From: Phormidesmis priestleyi
Lineage (GTDB): Bacteria; Cyanobacteriota; Cyanobacteriia; Phormidesmidales; Phormidesmidaceae
Length of the DNA stretch: 24,648 nucleotides
NCBI GenBank assembly: GCA_003242115.1
Contig: QBMP01000007.1
Location: 11,223 to 35,870, forward strand
Reading direction: 5' to 3'
In this document: piece after piece, positions 11,329 through 23,587 of the stretch
Layout of the letters: each line of letters opens with the position of its first letter
How positions within the stretch are numbered: position 1 is the first letter of the stretch
The notes under the pieces: generated by a model
What the model was told of the DNA's origin: nothing
Seen by the model: only the letters and a program-made list of their open reading frames with translations
Databases searched by the model: none
Position numbers and translations under genes: made by a program

Positions 11329-11342
11329 TCGACTCTTGTACA

Positions 11343-11359
11343 GTGACACTTTATGTCAC
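11343..11359. promoter_or_regulatory. Perfect inverted repeat, possible operator upstream of defence operon
   Basis: GTGACA (11343-11348) and TGTCAC (11354-11359) flank 5 nt. The dyad lies 15 bp after the tRNA and 78 bp before the DUF499 start, where a repressor or activator site for the operon would be expected. No T-run follows, so it is unlikely to be the tRNA terminator. The function is inferred from position and symmetry alone. Confidence 0.35.
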
Positions 11360-11387
11360 AATTCCACGCTATGCGGTTCGGTTCCCC

Positions 11388-11425
11388 AGAGAATCCCCCG
11401 CTTTCAGCGGCGGGAGTATGTCAAA
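11388..11425 (-). mobile_element. Possible IS200/IS605-type element end (hairpin remnant)
   Basis: Read on the minus strand, this segment runs TTTGACATACTCCCGCCG, then CTGAAAGCGGGGGATTCT. A TTGACATnCTCCC box, a short GC-rich hairpin and a GGGGATTCT box are the layout I know from ends of IS200/IS605-type or TnpB-associated elements. No transposase or TnpB frame adjoins it, so it would be a solo end or relic. The hairpin (CCGC TTTCA GCGG on the plus strand) lies in the presumed 5' leader of DUF499 and might instead have a regulatory role. Confidence 0.4.
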
Positions 11426-11437
11426 GAGAAGCAATAT

Positions 11438-14400
11438 ATGTTGAAGACGGTCAAAGACGGCTGCAAAATTCACCCATCTACCTTGGATTATCAGGTGGCG
11501 GGCGGGGTTGAGAGTTTGGCTCAGATGATTGACTCTCAAGACGAGGGTCAGGCTTTTTTTGAGAAGAGCTATCTGACTAGAGGGATGGAGGAACTGCTGC
11601 GCGAGGGACTGCTGCGGCTGTCGGGGCAGACGGATCAGGCTCTATTTGAACTGGCCCAAGCGATGGGTGGCGGTAAAACTCACCTGATGTGCGCTTTGGG
11701 ACTGCTGGCTAAATATCCGTCTGCGCGATCGCACGTCTTACCTTCAGATGTCATTCAGCGACTAGATGACACGCAGGCCCAGATCGCCATATTCGACGGT
11801 CGAGACAGTCCAGACCATTACCTATGGGGTGAAATCGCTAAGCAGATCGGGGCGGAAGAGGCGATGCGCCCGTTCTGGCAGAATGGCCCCAAGGCACCCG
11901 GCAAAGAGCACTGGAAAGAAATGATTGGCGATCGCCCGACGCTGATTTTATTCGATGAGTTGCCCCCTTACTTCCTTGAAGCACGAACGATGCCAGTGGG
12001 TAAGGGCTCGATGGTAGATGTGCTCACCAGGGCACTGTCCAATTTATTCGTCGCTGCGCTGGAGCTGCCGCGCTGCTGTGTGGTGCTAGCCAACCTATCG
12101 GATAGCTACCGCGAGCAGGTTAAAGAAGTAAATAAGCTCGTGGCCGATGTGCAGCGAGAAGCCTCCCGGCAAGCCAAGAAGATTACGCCCGTTTCCTTAG
12201 AAGGCAGCGAAGTTTACTCCATTTTGCGCAAGCGCCTGTTTTCGTCAATGCCGACAGACGAGGAAATTGATGAGGTGGCTGAAGCCTATGCTGCGCAGGT
12301 GAAGCTGGCAGAAGATAGCGGCTATTTGACCGCTCGCAGTCTGGAGCAAATTGCCGATGAAATTCGGGCGACCTATCCGTTTCATCCGTCGTTTAAGCAC
12401 TTGGTGGCGCTGTTTAAGGACAACCCAGATTTTCGGGAGACGCGGGGGCTATTGCAGTTTGCGGCGCGGGTGGTGCGCTCGGTGTGGCAGCGAGATCATA
12501 ACGATGTCTTTTTAGTGGGTACTCAGCACCTGGATTTGAATGACGCTCAGGTGATGAATGAGGTCACTGATATCAACCGGGCGTTGCGACCGGCGATCAC
12601 GATGGATATTGCCGACAATGGCAATGCCCATGCTGAAGATATTGACGCCAATCTGAATAGTGATGCGGCTTCTCAGGTGGCGGCAATGATTCTTTCGGCG
12701 TCACTTTCCTTAGCTGTGAAGGGTCACATGGGGCTGCGTCGGGAGGAAGTAATTGAGTACCTTTCTGCGCCTAATCGGAAGCCGGAGGAGTTTGCCCAGG
12801 CGTTTGAGCGACTGCGTAAGAGCGCCTGGTATCTCCATGCTGAGGGTGAGCTTTTTTACTTTAAAGACACGGAGAACCTGACTAAACGGATTCAGCGCGA
12901 GGCGAAAGGGCTACCGGAGCCGAAGGTGTATAAAGCGCTGAGAAATCGGCTGGAGGGAGAGCTAGAGGCGCGATCGCGGCGGGCCTATCAGGAGGTGATG
13001 GTGATGCCAGAGATTGATGAAATCAAGCTGAGCGCTCATCGTATTTTGGTAGTGGTTCCGCCTGATAATCGGGTGCCGCCTGAGGATATTCAGCGGTTTT
13101 ATCAGTCTGTGTCGGAAAAGAATAATCTACTGCTGCTCTCCGGGAATGACACGCATATGGCAAGTCGGGTGGAGGAAGCCTTACGGGAGCTGTATGCCAT
13201 TGAGAATATCGCCAGGGGCTTGAATTCTAGCGATCCGCTGTATGCTCAGGCTCAAGATGCTAGAGAAGAAGCCGAAGGATCGTTTATTCAGGCGCTGCAA
13301 GGCACTTACAACCGGGTGTTTTATCCTTCTGAAGAGGGTCTGCAACCGGCCACTATTGAGACTGGTCTGAAGTTTGGGCAGACCAGCGCAGATAGCGTTG
13401 AAACCCAACTCGAAAACATGCTGGCTAGTATGCGCTGTGACGAAAAGCTGGCGGTAGATGCTGACGCCAACCCATTGAAGTATTTTGCGATGGCCGAAGA
13501 AGACCTTTGGCCGCAGAGCGATCGCCGGACGCCCTGGCGCGATGTGCTAATACGGGCAAAAAGCAATCCGGCTTGGCCCTGGCTACCCGGCATTAAAGGG
13601 CTAGAGTCGCTGAAGGTGAAGGCGATTTCTCAGGGGCGCTGGCGAGAAGGTAACGATGGCTGGATTGAAAAAGGCCCGTTCCCGAAAGAAAAAACTGCCG
13701 TCAACGTTTTGAGTCAAGAAGATACCCGTAGCGATGAATCGGTGCTGGCTATTACGCCGAGTCATGCTGGCCCAAGTCCGAAGGTGCATTACGCAACGAC
13801 GGCGGCGGTCAGTGATGCCGATCCGGTGGTGGATGACTTAGATGCCTTTCGCACGAAAGAGCCGACGCTTTATTTCCGAGCCTTTGACACGACGGGCAAT
13901 CATGCTTCTGGCGAGCCCAAGCGGTGGGTGGCTAAGCTCAAAGTGCGCTATCAGGTGCATGAGTATTCCGACCATCGTAAGGTTGAGCTGGCGGTCACGC
14001 CTGCTGCTGAGATTCGCTACACGACGGATGCGACGAATCCGCGTGAGGGCAGAGTTTACGACGAGCCGTTCACCATTTCAGATGAGCGTATCATGCTTCA
14101 GGTGTATGCCAGTGCGGGAGAGGCGAAAGCGACTGAAACCTTCACGATTGCTGAGAAGGGAACCAAACGCGCTGAGATCGACGACGCGAAGACTGCCAAG
14201 CTAAATCGAAAGTCCCGTTTTGATACGACAAATGCGGTCTTTGGCTTAATTGCGGCCTTCAAGGAGCGTCAGGGCGTTATTTTTAATGGCGTTACGCTCA
14301 ATGTGGGAGAAGGGGAGCAAGCGGTGCAGGTGCGGTTTAATGACCGCGCGGTGACGCCGACTATTCTTGAAAAAGTAATTGCTGCCCTACGGGAAAATCT

Positions 14401-14527
14401 CGATGAGCCGGATGCTTTGGTACAGTTAACTATCCGGGATGGTGCTGCTTTTGATACTGGGTTTGATCTCAAGGCCTTTGCTGAGCTGGCAGGGATTGAG
14501 CTAACGCCCGATACGGTGGAGCAGTGA
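11438..14527 (+). CDS. DUF499-family AAA+ ATPase, anti-phage array component
   Basis: With the start at ATG 11438 (preceded by AGAGAAG) the protein has 1029 residues; the frame is open from 11336, but the extra part is made of the inverted repeat and the IS-like hairpin. Walker A is AMGGGKTH (75-82), Walker B is LILFDELPP with D173 and E174, and VVLANLSDSY follows as a likely sensor region. These match the large ATPases of DUF499 (COG1483). Residues about 850-905 (AEIRYTTDATNPREGRVYDEP) look like a chitobiase/hexosaminidase C-terminal-type beta-sandwich. DUF499 proteins co-occur with DUF1156 methylases and helicases in defence loci and probably power DNA remodelling or recruitment (inference). 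It is first in the plus-strand array; the DUF3780 start follows its stop after one base. Confidence 0.9.
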   Translation: MLKTVKDGCKIHPSTLDYQVAGGVESLAQMIDSQDEGQAFFEKSYLTRGMEELLREGLLRLSGQTDQALFELAQAMGGGKTHLMCALGLLAKYPSARSHVLPSDVIQRLDDTQAQIAIFDGRDSPDHYLWGEIAKQIGAEEAMRPFWQNGPKAPGKEHWKEMIGDRPTLILFDELPPYFLEARTMPVGKGSMVDVLTRALSNLFVAALELPRCCVVLANLSDSYREQVKEVNKLVADVQREASRQAKKITPVSLEGSEVYSILRKRLFSSMPTDEEIDEVAEAYAAQVKLAEDSGYLTARSLEQIADEIRATYPFHPSFKHLVALFKDNPDFRETRGLLQFAARVVRSVWQRDHNDVFLVGTQHLDLNDAQVMNEVTDINRALRPAITMDIADNGNAHAEDIDANLNSDAASQVAAMILSASLSLAVKGHMGLRREEVIEYLSAPNRKPEEFAQAFERLRKSAWYLHAEGELFYFKDTENLTKRIQREAKGLPEPKVYKALRNRLEGELEARSRRAYQEVMVMPEIDEIKLSAHRILVVVPPDNRVPPEDIQRFYQSVSEKNNLLLLSGNDTHMASRVEEALRELYAIENIARGLNSSDPLYAQAQDAREEAEGSFIQALQGTYNRVFYPSEEGLQPATIETGLKFGQTSADSVETQLENMLASMRCDEKLAVDADANPLKYFAMAEEDLWPQSDRRTPWRDVLIRAKSNPAWPWLPGIKGLESLKVKAISQGRWREGNDGWIEKGPFPKEKTAVNVLSQEDTRSDESVLAITPSHAGPSPKVHYATTAAVSDADPVVDDLDAFRTKEPTLYFRAFDTTGNHASGEPKRWVAKLKVRYQVHEYSDHRKVELAVTPAAEIRYTTDATNPREGRVYDEPFTISDERIMLQVYASAGEAKATETFTIAEKGTKRAEIDDAKTAKLNRKSRFDTTNAVFGLIAAFKERQGVIFNGVTLNVGEGEQAVQVRFNDRAVTPTILEKVIAALRENLDEPDALVQLTIRDGAAFDTGFDLKAFAELAGIELTPDTVEQ

Positions 14528-14528
14528 G

Positions 14529-15179
14529 ATGGCGCTAGTACATGCTGATCCAATGACTATGGCCAAAGAGCTAAAAAAGACGAGCCCCCAAAAAACGAGT
14601 AAGCAGGCTGTTCAACTGGCTCATGCGACTCAGGGATTTGGCGTACCGCTGACGGCTGCACCGCATCATTTTTGGGTGGTGATTCCTCGGGGAACTCAGC
14701 AGCCGGTGCAGATCGTTGAAGATTTGGGGATGCACATTCACGGCGGTGAGAGTGAGCTGCTAGAGCGCGTGGTGCTGCCGCGTTCGGTTTGGACGGCGAT
14801 CGCTAACCCAGTTAAGCGGATGTTTAATGAGCGGCTGAAGGCGCATAAGCTGAAGGCGGGACAGTGGAAGGTGGGCAAGAACCGAGTGGATCGGCTGCTG
14901 GGTAAGGAGCTGTGTGTGCTGGCTTGGGCGATTGAAGAGCTAGAAGAGGAGAAGGTGGGGGCGGCTTTGCGGAACTGGCTGGCGTTGCGTCCAGAGGAGC
15001 GCTGGTGGCTGTTTGGGATGACGGCTTCTACGGTGGGGGCTCCGGAGGATAAAGGGCGAGGCTGGCGGATGGCGCTGAAGTATGCGCTGGGCGATTCGCC
15101 GCAGCCGGTGATTTTGGAGGCGCGGAAGGCACAGGTCAAGGACGACGAATACGAAACATTGCCTTTGTTTCAGACTTAG
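14529..15179 (+). CDS. DUF3780 protein, anti-phage array component
   Basis: A 216-residue protein matching in my reading the DUF3780 family, which is found beside DUF499 and DUF1156 genes. The core begins at about residue 36 with GFGVPLTAAPHHFWVVIPRG, continues with LPRSVWTAIANPVKRMFNERL and LCVLAWAIEELE, and ends with DEYETLPLFQT. No catalytic motif is visible, so a structural or DNA-recognition role is possible but unproven. The ATG one base after the DUF499 stop, with GGAG about 8 nt upstream, implies translational coupling; ATG 14553 and 14559 are alternatives. The Lys-rich start (about 12-26) may be disordered. Confidence 0.85.
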   Translation: MALVHADPMTMAKELKKTSPQKTSKQAVQLAHATQGFGVPLTAAPHHFWVVIPRGTQQPVQIVEDLGMHIHGGESELLERVVLPRSVWTAIANPVKRMFNERLKAHKLKAGQWKVGKNRVDRLLGKELCVLAWAIEELEEEKVGAALRNWLALRPEERWWLFGMTASTVGAPEDKGRGWRMALKYALGDSPQPVILEARKAQVKDDEYETLPLFQT

Positions 15180-15238: not shown

Positions 15239-15490
15239 ATGACCGTCCAAGAATTATTGAACGCTGCTCAAAAGTTGAGTTTGCCAGATCAGCTTCAACT
15301 GGCGAGTCAACTTATGCAGGTAGCTAGCCAAAAGCTTCAGACAGCTTCTGTGCCTGCTCCGACCTCATCGGATACAGAAGATCCTTTAGTGGGTCTTTTC
15401 TCAGGCTCTGTGGATTTAGCTACGCGCTCCAAAGAAATCTTGGAGCAGGAAATTAAGTCGAGTTCTGGATTTACATGGAAAGAGTCTTAG
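15239..15490 (+). CDS. VapB-like antitoxin
   Basis: An 83-residue protein starting MTVQELLNAAQKLSLPDQLQLASQLMQ, an amphipathic helical start typical of small cyanobacterial antitoxins encoded before PIN toxins. A Pro/Ser/Thr-rich middle leads to a C-terminal part (about 55-83) likely to bind the toxin. A strong GGAGG (15224-15228) precedes the ATG, unlike most genes here, which fits high antitoxin output. It overlaps the toxin gene by 16 bp. Identification rests mainly on size, order and the overlap. Confidence 0.75.
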   Translation: MTVQELLNAAQKLSLPDQLQLASQLMQVASQKLQTASVPAPTSSDTEDPLVGLFSGSVDLATRSKEILEQEIKSSSGFTWKES

Positions 15491-15891
15491 CCGATAGTGG
15501 CTTTGTTGTCGCTTTAATGAATCGTTCTGATCAAAGGCACGCCGATGTTTCCCCTATCTATAAGCAGTACGCGCAAATTTTGCTGCCCCAGATGGTGCTA
15601 GTCGAAGTCGCCTACTTAATCGGTCGTGATGCTGGGATTTCTACAGTGGTTGAATTTCTGAAGGGGCTACCGGCTAGTCGATTTGAAGTGATTGAAGCGT
15701 CAGCCCAAGACCTTGAGCGAACGGCTCAAATATTAGAGCAGTATGCTGATAGCAAAGTTGATTTTGTGGATGCGATTGTCATGGCGATCGCAGAACGACT
15801 TAATATCACAGCGATTTTGACTATCGATCAGCGTGATTTCAGGCTTTTTAGACCGTCACATTGCGAAAGTTTTACGTTGCGCCCCCAGTAA
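15475..15891 (+). CDS. VapC-like PIN-domain toxin
   Basis: A 138-residue PIN-domain protein, probably a Mg-dependent endoribonuclease toxin. The acidic active-site residues are visible: D7 (LADSGF), E44 (LVEVAYL), D96/D99 (VDFVDAIVMAIAE) and D118/D121 (TIDQRDF). The length is normal for VapC. The start overlaps the antitoxin's last 16 bp, so the two are translationally coupled. The pair sits between DUF3780 and the DUF1156 methylase, in the same direction. VapBC pairs are common in cyanobacteria, so the pair may be a passenger or may stabilise the array (see findings). Confidence 0.88.
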   Translation: MERVLADSGFVVALMNRSDQRHADVSPIYKQYAQILLPQMVLVEVAYLIGRDAGISTVVEFLKGLPASRFEVIEASAQDLERTAQILEQYADSKVDFVDAIVMAIAERLNITAILTIDQRDFRLFRPSHCESFTLRPQ

Positions 15892-15946: not shown

Positions 15947-18900
15947 ATGCCGACTACGCCTTTAACGCCGCTTGCTCTCAAAGATGCTCCCTCGCTGATA
16001 GAGCGAGTGTTTCCGGCGCAGAAGGTGTCGGCGGAGGCGCAGAAGGAGCGTAAGGCAAATACAGGGCAAACGCTGACGGTGCTGGGGTCTTATTGGAAGG
16101 GGCGCAAGCCGCTGATTATGGTGCGGGCGATTGTGCTGGGCTGTTTGCTGCCGGTGACGGATGATCTGGAGGCGGATCTGCATATTTTTGAACTGTTGAT
16201 GGCGATGGATGATGCGGCCTTTGGGCGGCGGGAGCCAAAGCTGAAGGTGGGGGAGATTGCGGAGCGGATTACGTTGGCGAATCCCTGGGATTTTTTTGAC
16301 TACACGAATAAGTTTTACGATGCGGACGAGATTGAGGTGCTTGAATTTCCTTTGGATGGGGCTGCGTATCCGAAGCTGAAGCTGCGCTGGAAGCGGGGGC
16401 TGGCGGATGAGCAGAAGCAGCCGCTGCTGGCGCTAGCGCTGGCGGGGTTGCCCTATGCGGAGAAGGTGAGGCTGTGTCGCAGGCCAGAGGAGTTAGATCC
16501 GCAGGGGCTGTATGGCCCAATTTGGGATGAGGTGAATGGGCACCTGGCACGGTTTGGCGTGGAGGCGGATTCTCATGAGGAGCTGGTGGAGCAGCTAGGA
16601 ATGTTGCGCTATGGGCATCGGCCACGGGTGGGGGATACGTTTTGTGGGGGTGGCTCGATTCCGTTTGAGGCGGCGCGGTTGGGGTGTGATGTGTATGCGT
16701 CGGATTTGAATCCGGTGGCTTGTATGCTGACTTGGGGGGCACTGAATATTATTGGGGCGAGTGCGGAAAAGAGAGAAGAGATTGAGAAGGCTCAGAGAGA
16801 AGTTGCAGAAGCGGTGGATCGGGAGATTACTGAGCTGGGGATTGAGCACAATGAGCGAGGGGATCGGGCGAAGGCTTTTTTGTATTGTTTGGAAACGCGG
16901 TGCCCTGAGACGGGGTGGATGGTGCCGATGGCTCCGAGTTGGGTAGTTTCGAGTGATAACAGAGTTTGTGCAAAACTTATTCCCGACTACTATCATAAAA
17001 ATTTCATAATTCAAATTATTGAAGACGCCTCTAAACAAGAAATGAAAGCAGCTTCAAAAGGCACGATACAAAATGGTCATCTCGTCTACGAGCTAGACGG
17101 AAAGATATATAAAACGTCTGTAAAAACGATTCGAGAGGACTTTAAAAGTGAAGATGGTAATAGTCGAAATAAACTAAGAATATGGAGTAACGAAGACTTT
17201 AAGCCTGATCCTGAAGACATATTACAGGAGCGCCTATATTGTATTCAATGGATTACTAAGGAATCTTTTAAAGAGCGTCGGCAAGAAACTTTTTTTGCCT
17301 CTGTTTCTGAAATAGATTTAGAGAAAGAGAGGATGATTGAACGAGTACTCAAAGAAAATATAGAATCTTGGCAAGGAAAAGGAATAATTCCCCATATGCC
17401 AATCGAATCAGGATACAACACTGATCAACCTATTCGCGAACGTGGCTGGCAATACTGGCATCACCTATTTCATCCAAGACAACTGCTGAATTTAGCAACA
17501 TTGAAGAAACATTTGCAAAATAATTCAGAGCAAGCGGCATTGTTAGTTGCATTTGCTAAGACGCTGGATCGTTCAGCTAAGCTTTGTCAATGGAGCAGTA
17601 CTTCTGCTCAAGATATCCCACTACGTGTTTTCGTTAACCAAGCTTTAAATACTTTAATGAATTGGGGTGTCAGAGCTTCTACTTCGTTTGAAGGAGCCTT
17701 TTTATTTCGTGATTTTCGTTCGTCTGGTGGTGCTAATTTTGAATCAGAGAACATACAAGTTCACGCTATACCAGCTCACAACTTGTCTAATACCTGTGAT
17801 TTTTTTATCACAGATCCTCCGTATGCCGATGCCATTAACTACGAAGAAATAACAGAATTCTTCATCGCATGGCTCCGCAAAAATCCCCCCGCCCCCTTCG
17901 ACCAATGGACTTGGGATTCCCGCCGCGCCCTAGCCATCAAAGGCGACGGCGAAGCCTTCCGCCACGGCATGGTCGAAGCTTACCGCGCCATGACCCACCA
18001 CATGCCCGACAACGGCCTGCAATGCGTCATGTTCACCCACCAAGACACAGGCGTCTGGGCTGATATGGTTTCCATCTTCTGGGCCGCTGGCCTCCAAGTC
18101 GTCAGCGCCTGGTACATCGCCACCGAAACCACCTCCGAACTCAAACAAGGCGGCTACGTCCAGGGCACCGTCACTTTGTTGCTTCGTAAACGACTCGCCA
18201 CAGCATCCACCTTTAAGCAAAGATTGCTTCCCAAAATCCGCAAAGAAGTCACCGCCCAAATCGAAGCCATGATGAACCTGAACGACGACGCTCAGGCCCA
18301 CGGCGAATCGGTCTTCAACGACTCCGACCTGCAAATGGCAGGCTACGCCGCCGCCCTAAAAGTACTCACCCAATACACCGAAGTCGATGGCCGCGACATG
18401 ACCAGCCTCGCCCTCCAACCCCGACAAAAAGGCGACACCACCGTCGTAGACGACATCGTAGAATACGCCTCCGAAATCGCCAACAACCTGCTCATTCCCG
18501 AACGCCTCAAAGAACTCAACCCAGACACCTGGAGCGAAATAACCGGCGTCGAGCGCTTCTATCTGCGCATGGTCGCCATCGAGAAGACCGGAGCCGCCAA
18601 GCTCGATAACTACCAGAACTTCTCTAAAGCCTTTAATGTCGCCTATCAGCCCCTCATGGCCTCCCTAGAAGCCAACAAAGCCAGACTCAAAGGTGCAAAA
18701 GAATTCAAACCCCGCGAGCTGACCAGCGGCGATCTGGGCGGCACCCTCCTCAGCGAACTGCTGATGGCCATTCAGGAACTGCTGAACGATAAAGAGCCCA
18801 AGGTCGTACTCGGTCAAATTCGCTCTAGCCTAGATGCCACCTACTTTCAGAAGCGCAGCCATTTGATGGCAATGGCTCACTACCTGGCGGATATGTGGCG

Positions 18901-18970
18901 CGATCGCCGTCCTGAAGAAGCCCAAAAAGCGGAAATTGTGGGCGATCGCATTCGCAACGAGGGCATTTAA
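15947..18970 (+). CDS. DUF1156 adenine-type DNA methylase, anti-phage array component
   Basis: A 1007-residue methylase of the DUF1156 (COG1743) family. The N-terminal DUF1156 part has SLIERVFPAQKVSAEAQKER. SAM motif I is DTFCGGGSIPFEA (from D230), followed by CDVYASDLNPVAC. The catalytic motif DPPY is at 623-626 (TDPPYADAINYEEITEF), and a C-terminal part GGYVQGTVTLLLRKR continues the fold. Motif I before DPPY with about 380 residues between matches an alpha-type order with the target-recognition region in the middle. It presumably N6-methylates adenine to mark self DNA (family knowledge). The stretch encoding about residues 337-640 is far more AT-rich than either side. CPETGW near 320 may be a degenerate zinc-ribbon remnant. 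No HIP1 site occurs until the last 75 bp. Confidence 0.9.
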   Translation: MPTTPLTPLALKDAPSLIERVFPAQKVSAEAQKERKANTGQTLTVLGSYWKGRKPLIMVRAIVLGCLLPVTDDLEADLHIFELLMAMDDAAFGRREPKLKVGEIAERITLANPWDFFDYTNKFYDADEIEVLEFPLDGAAYPKLKLRWKRGLADEQKQPLLALALAGLPYAEKVRLCRRPEELDPQGLYGPIWDEVNGHLARFGVEADSHEELVEQLGMLRYGHRPRVGDTFCGGGSIPFEAARLGCDVYASDLNPVACMLTWGALNIIGASAEKREEIEKAQREVAEAVDREITELGIEHNERGDRAKAFLYCLETRCPETGWMVPMAPSWVVSSDNRVCAKLIPDYYHKNFIIQIIEDASKQEMKAASKGTIQNGHLVYELDGKIYKTSVKTIREDFKSEDGNSRNKLRIWSNEDFKPDPEDILQERLYCIQWITKESFKERRQETFFASVSEIDLEKERMIERVLKENIESWQGKGIIPHMPIESGYNTDQPIRERGWQYWHHLFHPRQLLNLATLKKHLQNNSEQAALLVAFAKTLDRSAKLCQWSSTSAQDIPLRVFVNQALNTLMNWGVRASTSFEGAFLFRDFRSSGGANFESENIQVHAIPAHNLSNTCDFFITDPPYADAINYEEITEFFIAWLRKNPPAPFDQWTWDSRRALAIKGDGEAFRHGMVEAYRAMTHHMPDNGLQCVMFTHQDTGVWADMVSIFWAAGLQVVSAWYIATETTSELKQGGYVQGTVTLLLRKRLATASTFKQRLLPKIRKEVTAQIEAMMNLNDDAQAHGESVFNDSDLQMAGYAAALKVLTQYTEVDGRDMTSLALQPRQKGDTTVVDDIVEYASEIANNLLIPERLKELNPDTWSEITGVERFYLRMVAIEKTGAAKLDNYQNFSKAFNVAYQPLMASLEANKARLKGAKEFKPRELTSGDLGGTLLSELLMAIQELLNDKEPKVVLGQIRSSLDATYFQKRSHLMAMAHYLADMWRDRRPEEAQKAEIVGDRIRNEGI

Positions 18971-18988: not shown

Positions 18989-19663
18989 CTAACCCGCATA
19001 CTCGTGCAGCAAATCACCCGTTTCTGCTCTTAGTGTCTCAATGTATCCAGCGATAGCCACGATAACGTTCTTTTCTGTAGCGCGATCGCCCGAACCAAAA
19101 ACAGCCCTGCAAGCCTTATCACAATCTCTCACGGGTACAATCTTGTCGCGCACAGCTTCAAACCCATACTCACAAATATCTCGTAATATAAGCTGTTCCA
19201 AGCACCAAAATCTGTTCTTAAATAACGCTTGTAGCTCTGGCAACGCTACTTCAGCCAAAGCTTTCAAATATCGCTTGTCGCCAGTCAGTATAAACGCCTC
19301 ACCGGCCTCGTCTTTTTGCAGCACCTGAGAAACATATGTCGTCAAAACAGCCTCGCCAGCATCTATGCCCTCAAAAGTGCAAAGCTGTTCTAACAACTCG
19401 CTATCTACCCTAGCTTGGTCAATTTGAGGCAACGTCTCAGCTAGCTCAATTGTTCTCTTGTAATTTACCAACTTGGCCTCGGGCTGTCGGAGCCTACCCT
19501 TCTCTAGCTTGGCCAAATCTCCTCGAAACTTATACTTTGCCGTAGCAAGCACTCTAATCTCAGTAGGAGCCGCCTCAAAGAGTTTTATCGTTTCCTCAAA
19601 TAGCTCAAAAGTCGCTAGCTTTTTGATAATGTCGTTGTCAATACAGTAAAGGCAGCCCGTCAA
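18989..19663 (-). CDS. PIN-like nuclease, partner of ImmA/IrrE protein
   Basis: A 224-residue protein with a PIN-like arrangement of acidic residues: D9/D11 (CIDNDIIKKLA), D101/E104 (GIDAGEAVL) and D129 (ILTGDKRYLKAL), each in the right kind of strand-turn context. The C-terminal 90 residues (LFKNRFWCLEQLILRDICEYGFEAV) are extra relative to VapC. The start is TTG 19661-19663, two bases after the stop of the ImmA/IrrE gene, with GGGAGA overlapping that gene's end. An RNA- or DNA-cleaving toxin role is inferred. It converges on the DUF1156 gene with an 18-bp gap. Confidence 0.75.
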   Translation of the reverse strand: MTGCLYCIDNDIIKKLATFELFEETIKLFEAAPTEIRVLATAKYKFRGDLAKLEKGRLRQPEAKLVNYKRTIELAETLPQIDQARVDSELLEQLCTFEGIDAGEAVLTTYVSQVLQKDEAGEAFILTGDKRYLKALAEVALPELQALFKNRFWCLEQLILRDICEYGFEAVRDKIVPVRDCDKACRAVFGSGDRATEKNVIVAIAGYIETLRAETGDLLHEYAG

Positions 19664-19665
19664 CT

Positions 19666-20787
19666 CTATTCTCCCAGGATGCGCTCAAGATGATCTATAG
19701 TGTCGTCGCCTAGACTTTCCCAATCCAAGTGATTTTCTAAAAAACGGCGGATGATCGCATCGCCAGACTCCTCACAGCCCAGCTCTTGTACTGCTTTCTT
19801 CGCCAGCCCAAACTTCTGAGAATCAGCCTTCTTAGCGTGCCAAGCGTAATTAAACGCCAAAACACAAGCATCCACTGTAGGGTCTGCTTTTAGCTTTTCT
19901 TCTATCTTCGCCCTTAGCTGTCCATTGTTATAAATAGATAAGCCTTGAAAGCAATTATCGTACTGGTTTACCAGCAGCTCAACCGCAAAACGATTCGCGG
20001 CTATTTCCTCTACATCATCAGATTCGTTAATTTCATCGTCGATCAAAATCCCCGTTTTTACATGGCCCAACGCCAAGTGACCTAGCTCATGCGCCAGATG
20101 AAAAGCTAACCAAGCCGGATGCGTAGACTTATGGCTAAGCAAAATTACTGGGCGATCGCCTTGCCACTGAATCATGCCAGTTATTTTACGAGTATCTTTC
20201 GGATAATCGTTAAAATACACAACTGCAATACCGCACTGCCAACAATAGCCCAACAAACTCTCAAGATCCACTTTAGAACCCTGAGCCACAACATCCTGAC
20301 GAACCTGCTTGACTGCTGTTGGAATAGGAATGAAAGGTCGTGGTTTTAGGCTAGAAGCGACTAGCTCGGCTATCCGCGAAGCTATTTGATAAGAAACGTA
20401 CGGAATATCTGAGGCTTGCTGATGATGATATTTGAACTTAGTTGGCAGTAATGGTTTGAACTCGGCTGCTAAATCGTTTTGTAGTAAGCTTCTCAAATCC
20501 AAATGCAGCCGCTGGGCGATATGTGCCGCGCCTTCTAGTACCGCAGCCGGGATTTCATTTAGCTCATCATCCCACCAGCTAGGCAAGCCCGCCCTACGCA
20601 CGTAGCTTGCGCTCAAGCCAACCGCCGAAAGCTTCTCAAGTAGGCTAACCATAGATAAAGATTGATTCAATGACTTTACCTCCCTTTCTTTTGCTTTCTT
20701 TTTCTCTTCAAGCAAATCGACCTCATTTATAGCTCTAAAACTTGGGAACGCTGTTACCCTCTTATCACTAGGTTTTATCGTATCCAT
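19666..20787 (-). CDS. ImmA/IrrE-family metallopeptidase
   Basis: A 373-residue protein with the zinc peptidase motif HELGH (233-237) in FHLAHELGHLALGH and a downstream glutamate pair (E260/E261) in VEEIAANRFAVELL, the M78/COG2856 pattern. In ImmA and IrrE this domain cleaves or inactivates a transcription repressor after a stress signal. The N-terminal half has a charged helix (27-40), then a helical region (LLEKLSAVGLSASYVRRAGLP), but I see no clear XRE helix-turn-helix. It is transcribed with the PIN-like gene (2-bp gap) and divergent from the helicase with only 33 bp between start codons. A regulator/antitoxin role towards the PIN-like partner is likely by analogy with other ImmA-type toxin-antitoxin pairs. 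Confidence 0.85.
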   Translation of the reverse strand: MDTIKPSDKRVTAFPSFRAINEVDLLEEKKKAKEREVKSLNQSLSMVSLLEKLSAVGLSASYVRRAGLPSWWDDELNEIPAAVLEGAAHIAQRLHLDLRSLLQNDLAAEFKPLLPTKFKYHHQQASDIPYVSYQIASRIAELVASSLKPRPFIPIPTAVKQVRQDVVAQGSKVDLESLLGYCWQCGIAVVYFNDYPKDTRKITGMIQWQGDRPVILLSHKSTHPAWLAFHLAHELGHLALGHVKTGILIDDEINESDDVEEIAANRFAVELLVNQYDNCFQGLSIYNNGQLRAKIEEKLKADPTVDACVLAFNYAWHAKKADSQKFGLAKKAVQELGCEESGDAIIRRFLENHLDWESLGDDTIDHLERILGE

Positions 20788-20820: not shown

Positions 20821-22629
20821 ATGAATTCTCCCTTAATTCAGCGTTTTTCCTCCAGAACTCAGCGCCTAGATCACACCATTCTCACAAAGTACCTCAAGCA
20901 GGCCCGACGCTACCACCGGATTGCAGGCTACTTCACCTCATCGCTGTTTGAGATTGCCGGAGAATACATTAATAGCATCGAAGACGTTCGGATCGTTTGC
21001 AATTCCGATGTTCGTTCTGAAGATATTAAAGTCGCCAAGATTCAGGAATCTAAGCTACTAGGCCGCTTAAACGACCTGCCTGTAGAAGCAGAATCGCTGC
21101 TGAACAGACCCCGCTACAAATGGCTTTACGAATTTCTGGGCAATCATCCCAATGCGATCCGAGTCGCACCCGACGACTTCTGTGGCTTCGTTCACGGCAA
21201 AGCAGGCGTGATTGAACTGCATGACGGTCGCCGGATTGGTTTCATGGGCTCCATGAACGAAACTAGAGCCGGATGGCAAGCCCATTACGAAATCGTCTGG
21301 TCGGACGAAAGCCCCGAAGGCGTCGATTGGATACAGTCTGAATTTGACGCGCTGTGGGCAAAAGCCGTACCGCTGCCGAGAGCCGTCGTGCAGGAAGTAG
21401 GCCGTCGCGCTCATCGGATTGAAATTGAGCTAGGCGAGCAACCTGACGATGAGAGTCTAGCTCCCGCTGCGCTGGTCGAATCGCCTATGTACCGGGAGGG
21501 CCTTTCTCTATCGCCCTGGCAGCGAGCCTTTGTTTCGGAATGTATGAAGCACCTACGCTGGCATGGCGTGGTCAGACTGCTGATCGCCGATGAGGTGGGC
21601 CTTGGCAAAACCCTTTCTTTAGCGACGGCAGCCCTCACGCTCACACTCATCAACGAACAAGAAATTGCCCAGCGTGGTGCGCGATCGCGCCGCCGCCCTA
21701 TTGTCATCTTTGCCCCTTCTTCCCTCACCGAACAGTGGCAAACGGAACTGCTCGATAAGCTAGGGCTCCCCTGCGCCCGCTGGTCATCGCGGCAAAAGGT
21801 CTGGCTTGACTCTGAAGAGAGAGCCATCTCGCCTACTGGCCCCGAGAACGTCGTGAGGTGCCCGCTACGCATTGGCATTATTTCAACTGGCCTGATTGTC
21901 CAGCCCACTCGGGAGCGAGAGCTGCTGAGCCAGGTGAATTTTGAAATCCTGATCCAGGACGAGTCGCATAAATCGCGTACTAAGCAAGGAATGGGCAAGG
22001 ACGCTGGCCAACCTAACGCGCTGTTACAGTTTATGCTGGCCGCTGCTGGTCGCTCTAAGCATGTGCTGCTAGGCACCGCCACGCCGATGCAAACTCAAGT
22101 TGACGATCTGTGGGATCAGCTCAAAATTTTGCACCAGGGCGATGGTCGGTTTGTCTTGGGCAATGACTTTAGTCCCTGGCATTACCCAGAACAGGTAGTG
22201 CCAGTATTGACGGGAAAGGAGAAAATTGATGATATGGAAGTGGCTTGGCGGTATGTGCGATCGCCCTTGCCGCCATTAGAGTCCTCCAACGAAAGCGACT
22301 TCCGACGAGTCATTCACGAAGTTCGTGGAGAATTAGGGCTCAAACCCCGAGATTTTGATACGGCTGCTCCGGTTGTAGCGTTACCCCGCGCTGTCCGTGA
22401 CGACCTAGAAGATTTGATGGATAGCGAAAAATCAAATATGGGATTCTTTCAGCGCCATAACCCCATTGTCCGCCATGTCGTACTGCGTAAGCGAAAGGTA
22501 CTAGAAGACGCCGGAATCCTTGAGAAAGATAGGTGTAGACCTTCATCCAAACCCAGAAAAAAGCCGCGATCCGAATACCTTTGCCGTTCTGTTTCAGCAA
22601 CGCGCACTCAGAACCAGCGAAGCGTTTGA
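20821..22629 (+). CDS. PLD-SNF2 helicase/nuclease, N-terminal fragment (frameshifted)
   Basis: The first 569 residues are an intact N-terminal part; the last 33 (from about 22528) are out-of-frame sequence. Residues 1-185 are a phospholipase D-like domain: H125-G-K127 and GSMNET (143-148) make the HxK...GSxN half-motif of this nuclease class. Residues about 228-560 are the first SNF2/superfamily 2 motor lobe: ADEVGLGKT (256-264), APSSLTEQW, the DEAH-box variant DESH (380-383) and GTATPMQ (418-424). Such PLD-helicase proteins accompany DUF499 and DUF1156 genes in defence loci. The second lobe is encoded in the next frame. As read, the motor is split and should not hydrolyse ATP productively. 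Confidence 0.88.
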   Translation: MNSPLIQRFSSRTQRLDHTILTKYLKQARRYHRIAGYFTSSLFEIAGEYINSIEDVRIVCNSDVRSEDIKVAKIQESKLLGRLNDLPVEAESLLNRPRYKWLYEFLGNHPNAIRVAPDDFCGFVHGKAGVIELHDGRRIGFMGSMNETRAGWQAHYEIVWSDESPEGVDWIQSEFDALWAKAVPLPRAVVQEVGRRAHRIEIELGEQPDDESLAPAALVESPMYREGLSLSPWQRAFVSECMKHLRWHGVVRLLIADEVGLGKTLSLATAALTLTLINEQEIAQRGARSRRRPIVIFAPSSLTEQWQTELLDKLGLPCARWSSRQKVWLDSEERAISPTGPENVVRCPLRIGIISTGLIVQPTRERELLSQVNFEILIQDESHKSRTKQGMGKDAGQPNALLQFMLAAAGRSKHVLLGTATPMQTQVDDLWDQLKILHQGDGRFVLGNDFSPWHYPEQVVPVLTGKEKIDDMEVAWRYVRSPLPPLESSNESDFRRVIHEVRGELGLKPRDFDTAAPVVALPRAVRDDLEDLMDSEKSNMGFFQRHNPIVRHVVLRKRKVLEDAGILEKDRCRPSSKPRKKPRSEYLCRSVSATRTQNQRSV

Positions 22630-23587
22630 AAATGCCTATGAAGCTGCCCAAGCCTTTGGCCGCGCCTATGGCAGACGAGTCGGCGGCGGTGGGTTCATGA
22701 AAAATTTGGTGACTCAGCGCCTTTGCTCTAGCTGTGTAGCCGGGTTGAATACCGCTCAGAAGCTGCTAGAACGACAGGCGATTGAAGACGACAGTGAACA
22801 AGAGACAATGCAAGACATTGACCTGGCGATCGCTGAGCAAGAAGCGCTTCATGACCTGATCAATGCCCTGAAGGGAATGCAGGGAGAAGACCCAAAGCTA
22901 AAGGCCGTCAAACACTACCTTGCTCAGGAAAACTGGGTTCAGCACGGTTGCATCATCTTTAGTCAGTATTACGACACTGCCGCCTGGGTCGCAGAAAATC
23001 TAGCAACCCTTTTTCCCGATCAGCTTATTGGCCTCTACGCTGGCGCAGATAAAAGCGCCCTGTTTCGCGGGCCAGAAAACCCAAACAGAGCCAAACGAGA
23101 AACACTGAAGAAAATGGTAGAAGACCAAGCTATCCGTATTATGGTCGCAACCGATGCTGCCTGTGAGGGGCTCAACCTTCAGCGCCTTGGTACCCTCATC
23201 AATGTCGATTTACCTTGGAATCCAACTCGCCTGGAGCAGCGGATTGGCCGCATTAAACGCTTTGGCCAGACGCGCCCCACGGTAGACATGCTCAACTTGG
23301 TCTACCAAGGCACCGTTGATGAAAACATCTACGAACGCCTTTCAGCTCGTATGAAAGATCGCTTTGACCTCTTTGGCTCTCTGCCAGATACCATCGAAGA
23401 CTCCTGGATTGATAACGTTGAGACGCTTGACGAAAAGCTCGATGAGTACATCGACGCTCAAAAGCGAGTGAATGGCTTTGACATCCGATATAACGAGAAC
23501 CTTGACGCCGAGGAAGATGAATGGCGTAACTGCGCTAAAGTTCTTTCTCGAAGGAGCATTGATACGCTGATGAGGAATGGCTGGTAA
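22520..23587 (+). CDS. PLD-SNF2 helicase/nuclease, C-terminal fragment (frameshifted)
   Basis: This frame carries the second helicase lobe: CIIFSQYYDTAAWVAENLA, the motif V region VATDAACEGLNLQ, INVDLPWNPTRLEQ and motif VI QRIGRIKRFGQ, then a C-terminal tail VDENIYERLSARMKDRFDLFG. The continuation from the upstream fragment is natural at about 22529 (IGVDLHPNPEKSRDP). Joining residues 1-569 of the upstream frame with 352 residues here gives about 921 aa. The apparent TTG start at 22520 is simply where the frame opens; nothing suggests independent translation. CSSC (about residue 69) is the only close cysteine pair. It is the last gene of the array. Confidence 0.85.
   Translation: MRKIGVDLHPNPEKSRDPNTFAVLFQQRALRTSEAFENAYEAAQAFGRAYGRRVGGGGFMKNLVTQRLCSSCVAGLNTAQKLLERQAIEDDSEQETMQDIDLAIAEQEALHDLINALKGMQGEDPKLKAVKHYLAQENWVQHGCIIFSQYYDTAAWVAENLATLFPDQLIGLYAGADKSALFRGPENPNRAKRETLKKMVEDQAIRIMVATDAACEGLNLQRLGTLINVDLPWNPTRLEQRIGRIKRFGQTRPTVDMLNLVYQGTVDENIYERLSARMKDRFDLFGSLPDTIEDSWIDNVETLDEKLDEYIDAQKRVNGFDIRYNENLDAEEDEWRNCAKVLSRRSIDTLMRNGW

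What the first reader, a model, noticed from the sequence alone, without database searches (positions are those of the whole stretch)
16955..17865. AT-rich segment inside the DUF1156 methylase: likely exchanged target-recognition region
Composition changes abruptly within one intact frame. Hand counts of single 60-base lines give 39 GC at 16621, 18 GC at 17101 and 33 GC at 18421. The AT-rich part encodes about residues 337-640, between SAM motif I (230) and just past DPPY (623), where an alpha-type methylase holds its target-recognition region. The two flanks also differ in codon style (G-ending left, C-ending right). This looks like replacement of the specificity module by recombination, which would change the self-marking sequence while conserving the scaffold.
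Basis: partly seen in the sequence, partly recalled or inferred. Interest (0 to 1): 0.75.

Follow-up and report, generated by a model that had tools for sequence, protein, structure and literature searches.

The report
Swapped specificity module in phage-defence methylase
A cyanobacterial phage-defence DNA methylase carries a replaced DNA-recognition segment between conserved halves, and in most cyanobacterial loci examined such segments sit at the centre of a mirror-image, strand-biased base composition for which no earlier description was found and which may mark or aid their exchange.

Summary
In detail: GC .575/.374/.568, change points 16943 and 17866. The gene is the DUF1156 adenine methylase of a Type-2 BREX-related system. 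Its four closest relatives match the flanks at 89-95% but the centre at 49-52%; flank and centre trees conflict. Among 262 proteins the nearly all-or-none unit is residues ~514-618; two Methylococcaceae assemblies are identical over 911 and 590 nt either side of a different centre. The specificity module was replaced.

That style is the larger finding. In cyanobacteria the strand running towards a specificity module is G-rich/C-poor on both sides, fading over several kb: DUF1156 methylases, 48 of 51 measurable HsdS loci, 40 of 40 MmeI-type TRDs. It follows position, not gene or coding strand, is rare around random ORFs (1 of 151 as strong as the HsdS mean) and absent on average outside cyanobacteria. 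Exceptions: L086, L064, two of 16 families; cas1 shows a weak version. Cause unproven.

The parts
15947..18970 (+). DUF1156 adenine DNA methylase of a Type-2 BREX-related system (1007 aa)
   Evidence: PADLOC DUF1156_MTase, NCBIfam NF042963 over cut-off, Pfam PF06634
15947..16906 (+). conserved left flank, residues 1-320 (DUF1156 domain, SAM motif I); G-rich silent sites
   Evidence: residues 1-332 are 89-94% identical to the four closest relatives; four-fold G .72 C .08
16628..16666 (+). SAM motif I (residues 228-240); motif name recalled
   Evidence: largely invariant block in the 145-protein alignment
16883..16918 (+). conserved block, residues 313-324, the last conserved stretch before the left breakpoint
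   Evidence: column entropy; identity to relatives drops after about residue 330
16943..17866 (+). AT-rich segment (residues 333-640) by GC change points
16949..17476 (+). M1: first part of the target-recognition insert, beta-rich in the model, moderately variable (residues 335-510)
17486..17800 (+). M2: hypervariable, nearly all-or-none core of the specificity module (residues 514-618)
   Evidence: AU tests
17813..17824 (+). catalytic motif DPPY (residues 623-626), right border of the module
   Evidence: invariant; identity recovers here
17810..18967 (+). conserved right flank, residues 622-1007; C-rich silent sites on this strand
   Evidence: residues 641-1007 are 92-95% identical to the four closest relatives; four-fold C .71 G .09
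11336..14527 (+). DUF499 AAA+ ATPase of the system; mildly G-rich silent sites
   Evidence: NF042962, PADLOC DUF499; composition
14529..15179 (+). DUF3780 protein of the system; G-rich silent sites
   Evidence: NF042961, PF12635; composition
15475..15891 (+). PIN-domain accessory gene
   Evidence: PF01850; 91% identical in L021
18989..19663 (-). accessory gene without a family match; plus strand C over G at silent sites although coded on minus
19666..20787 (-). M78 peptidase accessory gene; plus strand C over G at silent sites although coded on minus
   Evidence: PF06114
20821..22629 (+). PLD/SNF2 helicase effector, N-terminal part (first frame)
   Evidence: PDLC02193, part of NF042964, PF13091
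22520..23587 (+). PLD/SNF2 helicase effector, C-terminal part (another frame)
   Evidence: PDLC02193, part of NF042964

Best explanation
The AT-rich block is the target-recognition insert of an alpha-type adenine methylase that marks self DNA for a Type-2 BREX-related defence system. In this lineage the insert was replaced by homologous recombination, with crossovers near residues 320-335 and 620-660, while both ends of the protein and the neighbouring genes stayed with their lineage (shown by comparison). The smallest, nearly all-or-none unit is residues ~514-618; the neighbouring 335-510 part moves with it or stays. A new insert should give a new methylated and restricted sequence on an unchanged scaffold (inferred). 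The AT-richness and the G-left/C-right codon style are not scars of this one event: in most cyanobacterial loci examined, DNA flanking such modules is G-rich/C-poor on the strand running towards the module from both sides (shown). That is what would be expected if strand invasion and repair synthesis repeatedly run from the flanks into the module, leaving a mutational footprint or favouring flanks that recombine well (inferred).
For: Flanks 89-95%, centre 49-52% to the four closest relatives, and 45-55% to all 59 proteins compared. In 110 pairs with both flanks .93-.995 identical (262 proteins; pairs not independent, many from one group) M2 median is .30. Twelve Thermostichus-type proteins with N>=.95, C>=.96, M1>=.90 carry 6 M2 alleles. 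M2 rejects the P0001-P0005 clade (p 1e-41); N and C reject the query's M2 group (p 1e-6, 1e-7). L015/L019: 911 and 590 identical nt around a different centre. Same-genus L021: neighbours 78-93%, M1 57%, M2 43% over 51 aligned residues. P0169 (Thermostichus) and L022 (Rhodanobacteraceae) share M2 at .88 with N .69, C .54. Mirror skew: 48 of 51 measurable of 54 hsdS loci positive, mean .248; null .005, sd .076, 1 of 151 ORFs at .248 or more; apex at the hsdS midpoint; hsdR .58 left.38 right, hsdM .62.37, opposite-strand genes agree; 40 of 40 MmeI-type TRDs, mean .231.
Against: No donor found: best M2 match .60 and best M1 match .60, from different proteins, so one event or two cannot be told. 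E. coli shows no exchange: 49 of 5426 genomes hold two alleles, 17 and 32 genomes. M1 does not reject P0001+P0002 (p .08), neither M1 nor M2 rejects L015+L019 (p .18.08), the query's M2 group has support 85 only, and the groups were named after trees had been seen. The skew is missing at L086 and L064 and in family codes f2 and f13, although L086's Thermostichus group shows the clearest M2 exchange. cas1, without such a module, shows a weak version.096 in 8 of 20 measurable.059 in 16 of 20 with wider flanks, above the null (p .004). hsdS AT-richness correlates with the skew (r -.52); AT-rich random ORFs reach .048 (n 9). No methylation data.
Confidence: 0.9

Rival explanations
1. The centre diverged in place under diversifying selection; no DNA was exchanged.
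For: The centre keeps roughly its length and some conserved islands (about residues 421-430, 481-510, 561-570), as a fast-evolving domain would.
Against: Identical flanks of 911 and 590 nt around a centre whose 20-residue blocks are .35-.78 identical; near-identical M2 in distant backgrounds: P0169/L022 .88; P0014/P0017 .84 while N and C put P0014 with P0007.
Confidence: 0.04
2. The chimaeric pattern is an artefact of metagenome assembly.
For: Many relatives, L015 and L019 among them, are metagenome-assembled.
Against: The pattern also holds between proteins that sources name after Synechococcus sp. JA-2-3B'a(2-13) (P0131) and Thermostichus sp. OS-CIW-30 (P0169), N .98 C .98 M2 .31, and two Nitrosococcus oceani entries (P0092/P0095), N .93 C .95 M2 .18 (names; identities).
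Confidence: 0.03
3. The mirror skew is ordinary codon usage of particular genes (hsdM G-style, hsdR C-style) or of expression level.
For: hsdM is usually left and hsdR usually right of hsdS. GT-rich islands around E. coli Chi have been put down to codon usage (titles seen only in the reference list of PMC3763553).
Against: hsdR keto fraction is .58 when left (n 9) and .38 when right (n 25); hsdM .62 (n 42) and .37 (n 5); on the plus strand, minus-strand genes follow the same trend (11 of 12 left above .5, 2 of 19 right); intergenic DNA leans the same way (+.137 left, -.033 right); in DUF1156 genes the flip lies inside one reading frame.
Confidence: 0.05
4. The skew is a mutational footprint of repeated gap or break repair at the module, not something selected.
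For: G over C with slight T over A on the strand running to the module resembles the usual leading-strand bias (recalled), as if synthesis converged on the module; it fades with distance and reaches intergenic DNA and codon position 1.
Against: At four-fold sites G rises from .28 to .41-.45 while T stays flat, unlike simple C-to-T deamination; repair at one locus would have to be very frequent.
Confidence: 0.4
5. The skew is selected because G/T-rich 3' tails make stabler RecA filaments and so ease module exchange.
For: The direction fits the 3' tails of a break in the module on both sides; RecA filaments are most stable on TGG repeats (PMC3763553, abstract and passages).
Against: The same paper saw no effect of Chi or TG-rich DNA on nucleation. 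Chi itself is not enriched in the flanks; the most enriched shared 6-mer is CGATCG, and only a few G-rich words such as GTTGGG are mildly enriched (7 loci, exploratory). No exchange-rate data.
Confidence: 0.3

Closest known systems
Type-2 BREX-related (BR) system, PMC12839542 (passages and section 29 seen)
   Same: DUF499 ATPase, DUF3780, DUF1156 N6-methylase with a recognition insert after core strand 2, HKD helicase
   Different: The paper places the insert by fold and says in general that TRDs diverge fast; a search of its main text for recombination, shuffl, exchange and swap gave 0 hits each. Exchange in this family and the mirror skew are additions.
Target-recognition domain exchange in other restriction-modification enzymes (PMC3077401, PMC3983042; search listing and start of abstract only)
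   Same: Conserved scaffold with interchangeable recognition domains
   Different: Another enzyme family; the module is internal to an alpha-type methylase; one M2 is shared across phyla; a flanking compositional signature
PglX of BREX (PMC11341690, passages only)
   Same: Site-specific adenine methylase and specificity factor of a related defence system
   Different: PMC12839542 puts the TRD of canonical BREX methylases at the C-terminus, not in an insert; only 2 PglX loci were seen here
Replication-linked GC skew and GT-rich islands around Chi (PMC3763553 passages; otherwise recalled)
   Same: Strand-biased G over C; an oriented G/T-rich strand
   Different: Here local, mirror-symmetric and centred on specificity modules in cyanobacteria; mean -.031 in 12 non-cyanobacterial hsdS loci and .006 in 72 non-cyanobacterial DUF1156 loci

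Membership tests
Type-2 BREX-related system | DUF499 AAA+ ATPase | tested here: met
   NF042962 over cut-off, PADLOC DUF499. One FnIII-like region at 876-936; the paper reports two tandem ones in 53% of taxa
Type-2 BREX-related system | stand-alone DUF3780 in the locus | tested here: met
   NF042961 over cut-off, PF12635
Type-2 BREX-related system | DUF1156 N6-methylase with an insert between motif I and DPPY | tested here: met
   NF042963 over cut-off; motif I at 230, DPPY at 623; insert model pLDDT 89, pTM .87. The catalytic core of the full-length model is of low confidence
Type-2 BREX-related system | HKD/PLD-helicase fusion effector | tested here: inconclusive
   Both parts present but in two overlapping frames; one frame in L001 and L002
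Type-2 BREX-related system | four-cysteine zinc finger in the insert | tested here: inconclusive
   Conserved above 90% at or near the insert are only C314 and C319; columns 432, 547, 617 are 58, 60 and 39% Cys
Type-2 BREX-related system | methylation and phage restriction activity | not testable with these tools
   needs experiments
Exchange of a target-recognition domain | centre decoupled from flanks in identity and tree | tested here: met
Exchange of a target-recognition domain | sharp nucleotide breakpoints in near-identical flanks | tested here: met
   L015/L019; for the window itself only against L021, whose flanks are 88-92% identical in protein
Exchange of a target-recognition domain | same module in distant backgrounds | tested here: met
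   P0169/L022 .88, support 98; for the query's own module the best match is .60
Exchange of a target-recognition domain | changed recognition sequence | not testable with these tools
   needs methylomes
Known TRD folds in the PDB | structural match of the insert | tested here: inconclusive

The most novel reading that the evidence does not exclude
In cyanobacteria, exchangeable DNA-specificity modules of unrelated enzymes (DUF1156 methylases, HsdS, MmeI-type TRDs) are embedded in a mirror-image strand bias, G-rich/C-poor towards the module from both sides and fading over several kb, that is produced or maintained by recurrent homologous module exchange: a built-in exchange platform whose skew apex alone can point to hot spots of self/non-self diversification in a genome.
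Probability: 0.45. Interest if true: 0.92.

Novelty: new variant of a known kind. Interest (0 to 1): 0.84.

Why it matters
Exchange of recognition modules is how bacteria change the sequence that tells self from foreign DNA; here it is shown by sequence for a recently named defence family (BREX-related systems), with a module of about 105 residues that crosses phyla. The larger point is the mirror-image strand bias centred on specificity modules of unrelated enzymes across cyanobacteria. If it is a footprint of recombination, it makes an old question, how and how often specificity modules are exchanged and by which repair route, testable from base composition alone and in transformable laboratory cyanobacteria. 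If it is selected, it would be a sequence design that favours evolvability of immunity. Either way it warns that intragenic jumps in GC and codon style are not by themselves evidence of recent import.

Tried and rejected
Taken as evidence at first and dropped: the AT-rich centre as a sign of one foreign import (shared by relatives) and the codon flip as a sign of mosaic flanks (conserved).

Rows dropped before counts: proteins under 920 aa and exact duplicates (271 to 262); 87 matching locus ORFs to 82 by identical composition; of 20 hsdM-centred regions 14 had a Pfam-confirmed HsdS, 3 tested candidates were something else and 3 had no candidate; 3 of 54 hsdS loci too short to measure; hsdR 35 to 34 and hsdM 51 to 47 by length; 2 of 20 DUF1156 loci without a motif pair; one plasmid locus without annotated HsdS (L307) and one with a broken HsdS (L318) not used, and L319 (.09) reported outside the tally; 12 of 20, then 4 of 20 cas1 loci not measurable. 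Rows 'Hel1' were read off frame and are void. Two AU tests on the C segment did not finish. The MmeI-type prediction was made before the loci were fetched but not written down in the notebook; the 40 loci are 20 from the top and 20 from the divergent part of the match list, not a random draw, and all 40 were counted.

Full report
What was checked. The three hand counts of GC are exact and a three-segment fit puts the AT-rich block at 16943-17866, residues 333-640, GC .575/.374/.568 and GC3 .65/.29/.70; synonymous permutation excludes amino-acid content as the cause. Within 20 stretches (216,865 bases) of the same genome the gene has the largest skew flip and the largest central dip of four-fold GC among 54 ORFs of 400 aa or more, itself included.

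What the gene is. The 1007-aa protein is the DUF1156 adenine methylase; neighbours are DUF499 ATPase, DUF3780 protein and a PLD/SNF2 helicase, all to PADLOC and NCBIfam models named anti-phage (the helicase parts are each below the full-length cut-off because the gene is read in two frames). PMC12839542 (passages and one section seen) calls this set a Type-2 BREX-related system and places the recognition insert after core strand 2. Motif I (residue 230) comes before and DPPY (623) after the insert, the order of alpha-type methylases (recalled). A model of the insert alone is confident (pLDDT 89, pTM .87): a beta-rich first part and a helical second part, without a PDB match.

Replacement of the module. 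To the four closest proteins the flanks are 89-95% and the centre 49-52% identical; over 59 proteins the centre stays at 45-55% whatever the flanks do. Among 262 aligned proteins, 110 pairs with both flanks .93-.995 have a median M2 (residues 514-618) identity of .30 against a background near .27, with a top decile at .99 or more: nearly all-or-none; M1 (335-510) averages .91 in the same pairs. These pairs are not independent; many come from a Thermostichus-type set of 12 proteins that carries 6 M2 alleles at N>=.95, C>=.96, M1>=.90. In the query both M1 and M2 are out of line with the flanks; the best matches are .60 each and come from different proteins, so the donor is unknown and one event cannot be told from two.

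Trees. N and C trees agree on the query's cyanobacterial neighbours (C clade support 99; N clade of five only 56). M2 rejects that clade (p 1e-41) and M1 does too (p .002); N and C reject the query's M2 group, which includes a Candidatus Contendobacter protein (p 1e-6, 1e-7); that group has support 85 in M2. M1 does not reject query+P0002 (p .08), and neither M1 nor M2 rejects L015+L019 (p .18.08). Groups were named after trees had been seen, so the p-values are indicative; two tests on C did not finish.

Breakpoints. Two metagenome-assembled Methylococcaceae (L015, L019) are identical over 911 nt up to codon 327 and over 590 nt from codon 654, with 20-residue blocks of .35-.78 between about residues 321 and 620 and .85-.87 to 660; the 3.6 kb upstream are 98.2% identical. 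The borders agree with those of the AT-rich block of the window. In the same-genus locus L021 the neighbours are 78-93% identical in protein, M1 57%, M2 43% over 51 aligned residues. The centre crosses phyla: P0169, named Thermostichus, and L022, Rhodanobacteraceae, share M2 at .88 with N .69 and C .54. In E. coli, 49 of 5426 genomes hold two alleles (17 and 32 genomes) and no exchange is seen.

Composition is not the evidence. Of 82 loci, the window's included, M1 is GC3-poorer than the flanks in 78 and M2 in 72; the four closest loci have centres of GC .39-.40. The codon flip has its eight strongest cases among cyanobacterial loci (by it is clear in about ten cyanobacterial homologues, and weak or absent in L064/L114, L112, L113, L118, L086; L090 and L116 show it on the right only).

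The mirror skew. Silent sites on the left favour G (and T over C in two-fold codons), on the right C (and A over G): own-genome averages are G .29 C .31, T .60, G .45; the window's left has G .70, T .86, G .84 and its right C .71, T .28, G .24. Other cyanobacterial DUF1156 subfamilies, about 30% identical, show it too: L092-L095 and L097-L100 clearly, the own-genome paralogue L141 on the left and weakly on the right, and 18 of 18 measurable loci of 20 fetched from a Pfam search have more keto bases on the left (mean difference .26). HsdM genes, mostly upstream of hsdS, become more keto-rich towards their 3' end in 23 of 29 (without the two PglX loci), which suggested the next test.

Type I loci. 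In 54 cyanobacterial hsdS loci (14 of 20 hsdM-centred regions plus 40 from a PF01420 search) the keto fraction of silent sites on the strand running to hsdS is .67 next to it and .51 at 5-6.5 kb on the left, and .39 and .46 on the right. The left-minus-right difference over 2.5 kb averages .248 and is positive in 48 of 51 measurable loci. Null: 58 ORFs of the own genome, mean -.029; 151 ORFs in 20 cyanobacterial genomes, mean .005, sd .076, one at .248 or more, rank test p 3e-19. Fourteen of 16 family codes have means above .1; f2 and f13 do not. The apex lies at the hsdS midpoint, within 1.5 kb in 45 of 53 loci.

Position, not gene. hsdR is .58 when left of hsdS (n 9) and .38 when right (n 25); hsdM .62 (n 42) and .37 (n 5). 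Other genes within 2.5 kb, on the plus strand: left .62 if coded on plus (42 of 44 above .5) and .60 on minus (11 of 12); right .41 (7 of 48) and .44 (2 of 19). Intergenic skew is +.137 and -.033; codon position 1 moves the same way, position 2 slightly. At four-fold sites G is .41-.45 and C .17-.19 on the left, C .41-.44 and G .18 on the right, T and A nearly flat; background .28 each.

Third family and controls. For MmeI-type TRDs the same sign was predicted before the loci were fetched: 40 of 40 positive, mean .231, apex at the TRD. Non-cyanobacterial hsdS: 11 plasmid loci and E. coli K-12, mean -.031; a cyanobacterial plasmid locus (L319) .09. Non-cyanobacterial DUF1156: 72 loci, mean .006, sd .047, one above .15; cyanobacterial, 10 distinct loci.52 (window).42.40.31.23.17.14.13, -.02, -.06. 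cas1.096 in 8 of 20.059 in 16 of 20 with wider flanks (13 positive), above the null (p .004) and below hsdS at the same setting (.192, 53 loci; p 3e-5). So the signal is strongest at specificity modules but perhaps not unique to them.

How it may work. Shown: module replacement by sequence, and the mirror bias. Inferred: a break or gap in the heterologous module, or uptake of foreign DNA, leads to invasion by 3' tails from both flanks; synthesis then runs into the module, copying a new one. Either such synthesis leaves a leading-strand-like bias, or flanks that pair well are favoured; RecA filaments are most stable on TGG repeats, but nucleation is not helped by Chi (PMC3763553, abstract and passages). 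Four-fold identity between the window and L002 is .62 and .54 for the two flanks against chance .54 and .45, and .36 against .25 for DUF499, so silent sites are near saturation and the bias must be kept up rather than inherited. Why Thermostichus-type genomes, with the clearest M2 exchange, lack the skew is unexplained.

Novelty. TRD exchange is a known kind; its occurrence in this family was not found in print (searches; PMC12839542 term search). No description of the mirror skew was found (searches; listings only).

Noticed in passing
window 20821-22629 and 22520-23587: The PLD/SNF2 helicase is read in two overlapping frames here but in one frame in L001 and L002; the system may be impaired in this genome, or it is a sequence error. 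Not mended.
   Followed up: partly
window 15475-15891, 18989-19663, 19666-20787: A PIN gene, an unknown gene and an M78 peptidase gene lie within the locus; of the loci compared, L021 shares all three and L001, L002, L003 gave no match to any. Possibly a toxin-antitoxin-like accessory set.
   Followed up: no
L141 (own genome, second contig): A second, about 30% identical DUF1156 methylase in the same genome with the AT-rich centre and G-rich left part.
   Followed up: partly
L085 and L119 (G064): The methylase gene of another cyanobacterium is interrupted: residues 2-290 (with one stop) and 286-1007 lie about 1.3 kb apart.
   Followed up: no
L022 and protein P0169: A Rhodanobacteraceae assembly and a Thermostichus protein share the M2 module at .88 while the rest is distant.
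   Followed up: partly
L322-L341: cas1 loci of cyanobacteria show a weak mirror skew, L341 .33; cause unknown.
   Followed up: partly
L300 around 7800 and L292 around 7800: The two strongest mirror peaks in random cyanobacterial stretches lie near an AAA_21/kinase gene pair and near a methyltransferase/AcrB pair.
   Followed up: partly
flanks of cyanobacterial methylase genes: CGATCG, the core of the cyanobacterial HIP1 word (name recalled), is the most enriched 6-mer shared by left flank and reversed right flank.
   Followed up: no
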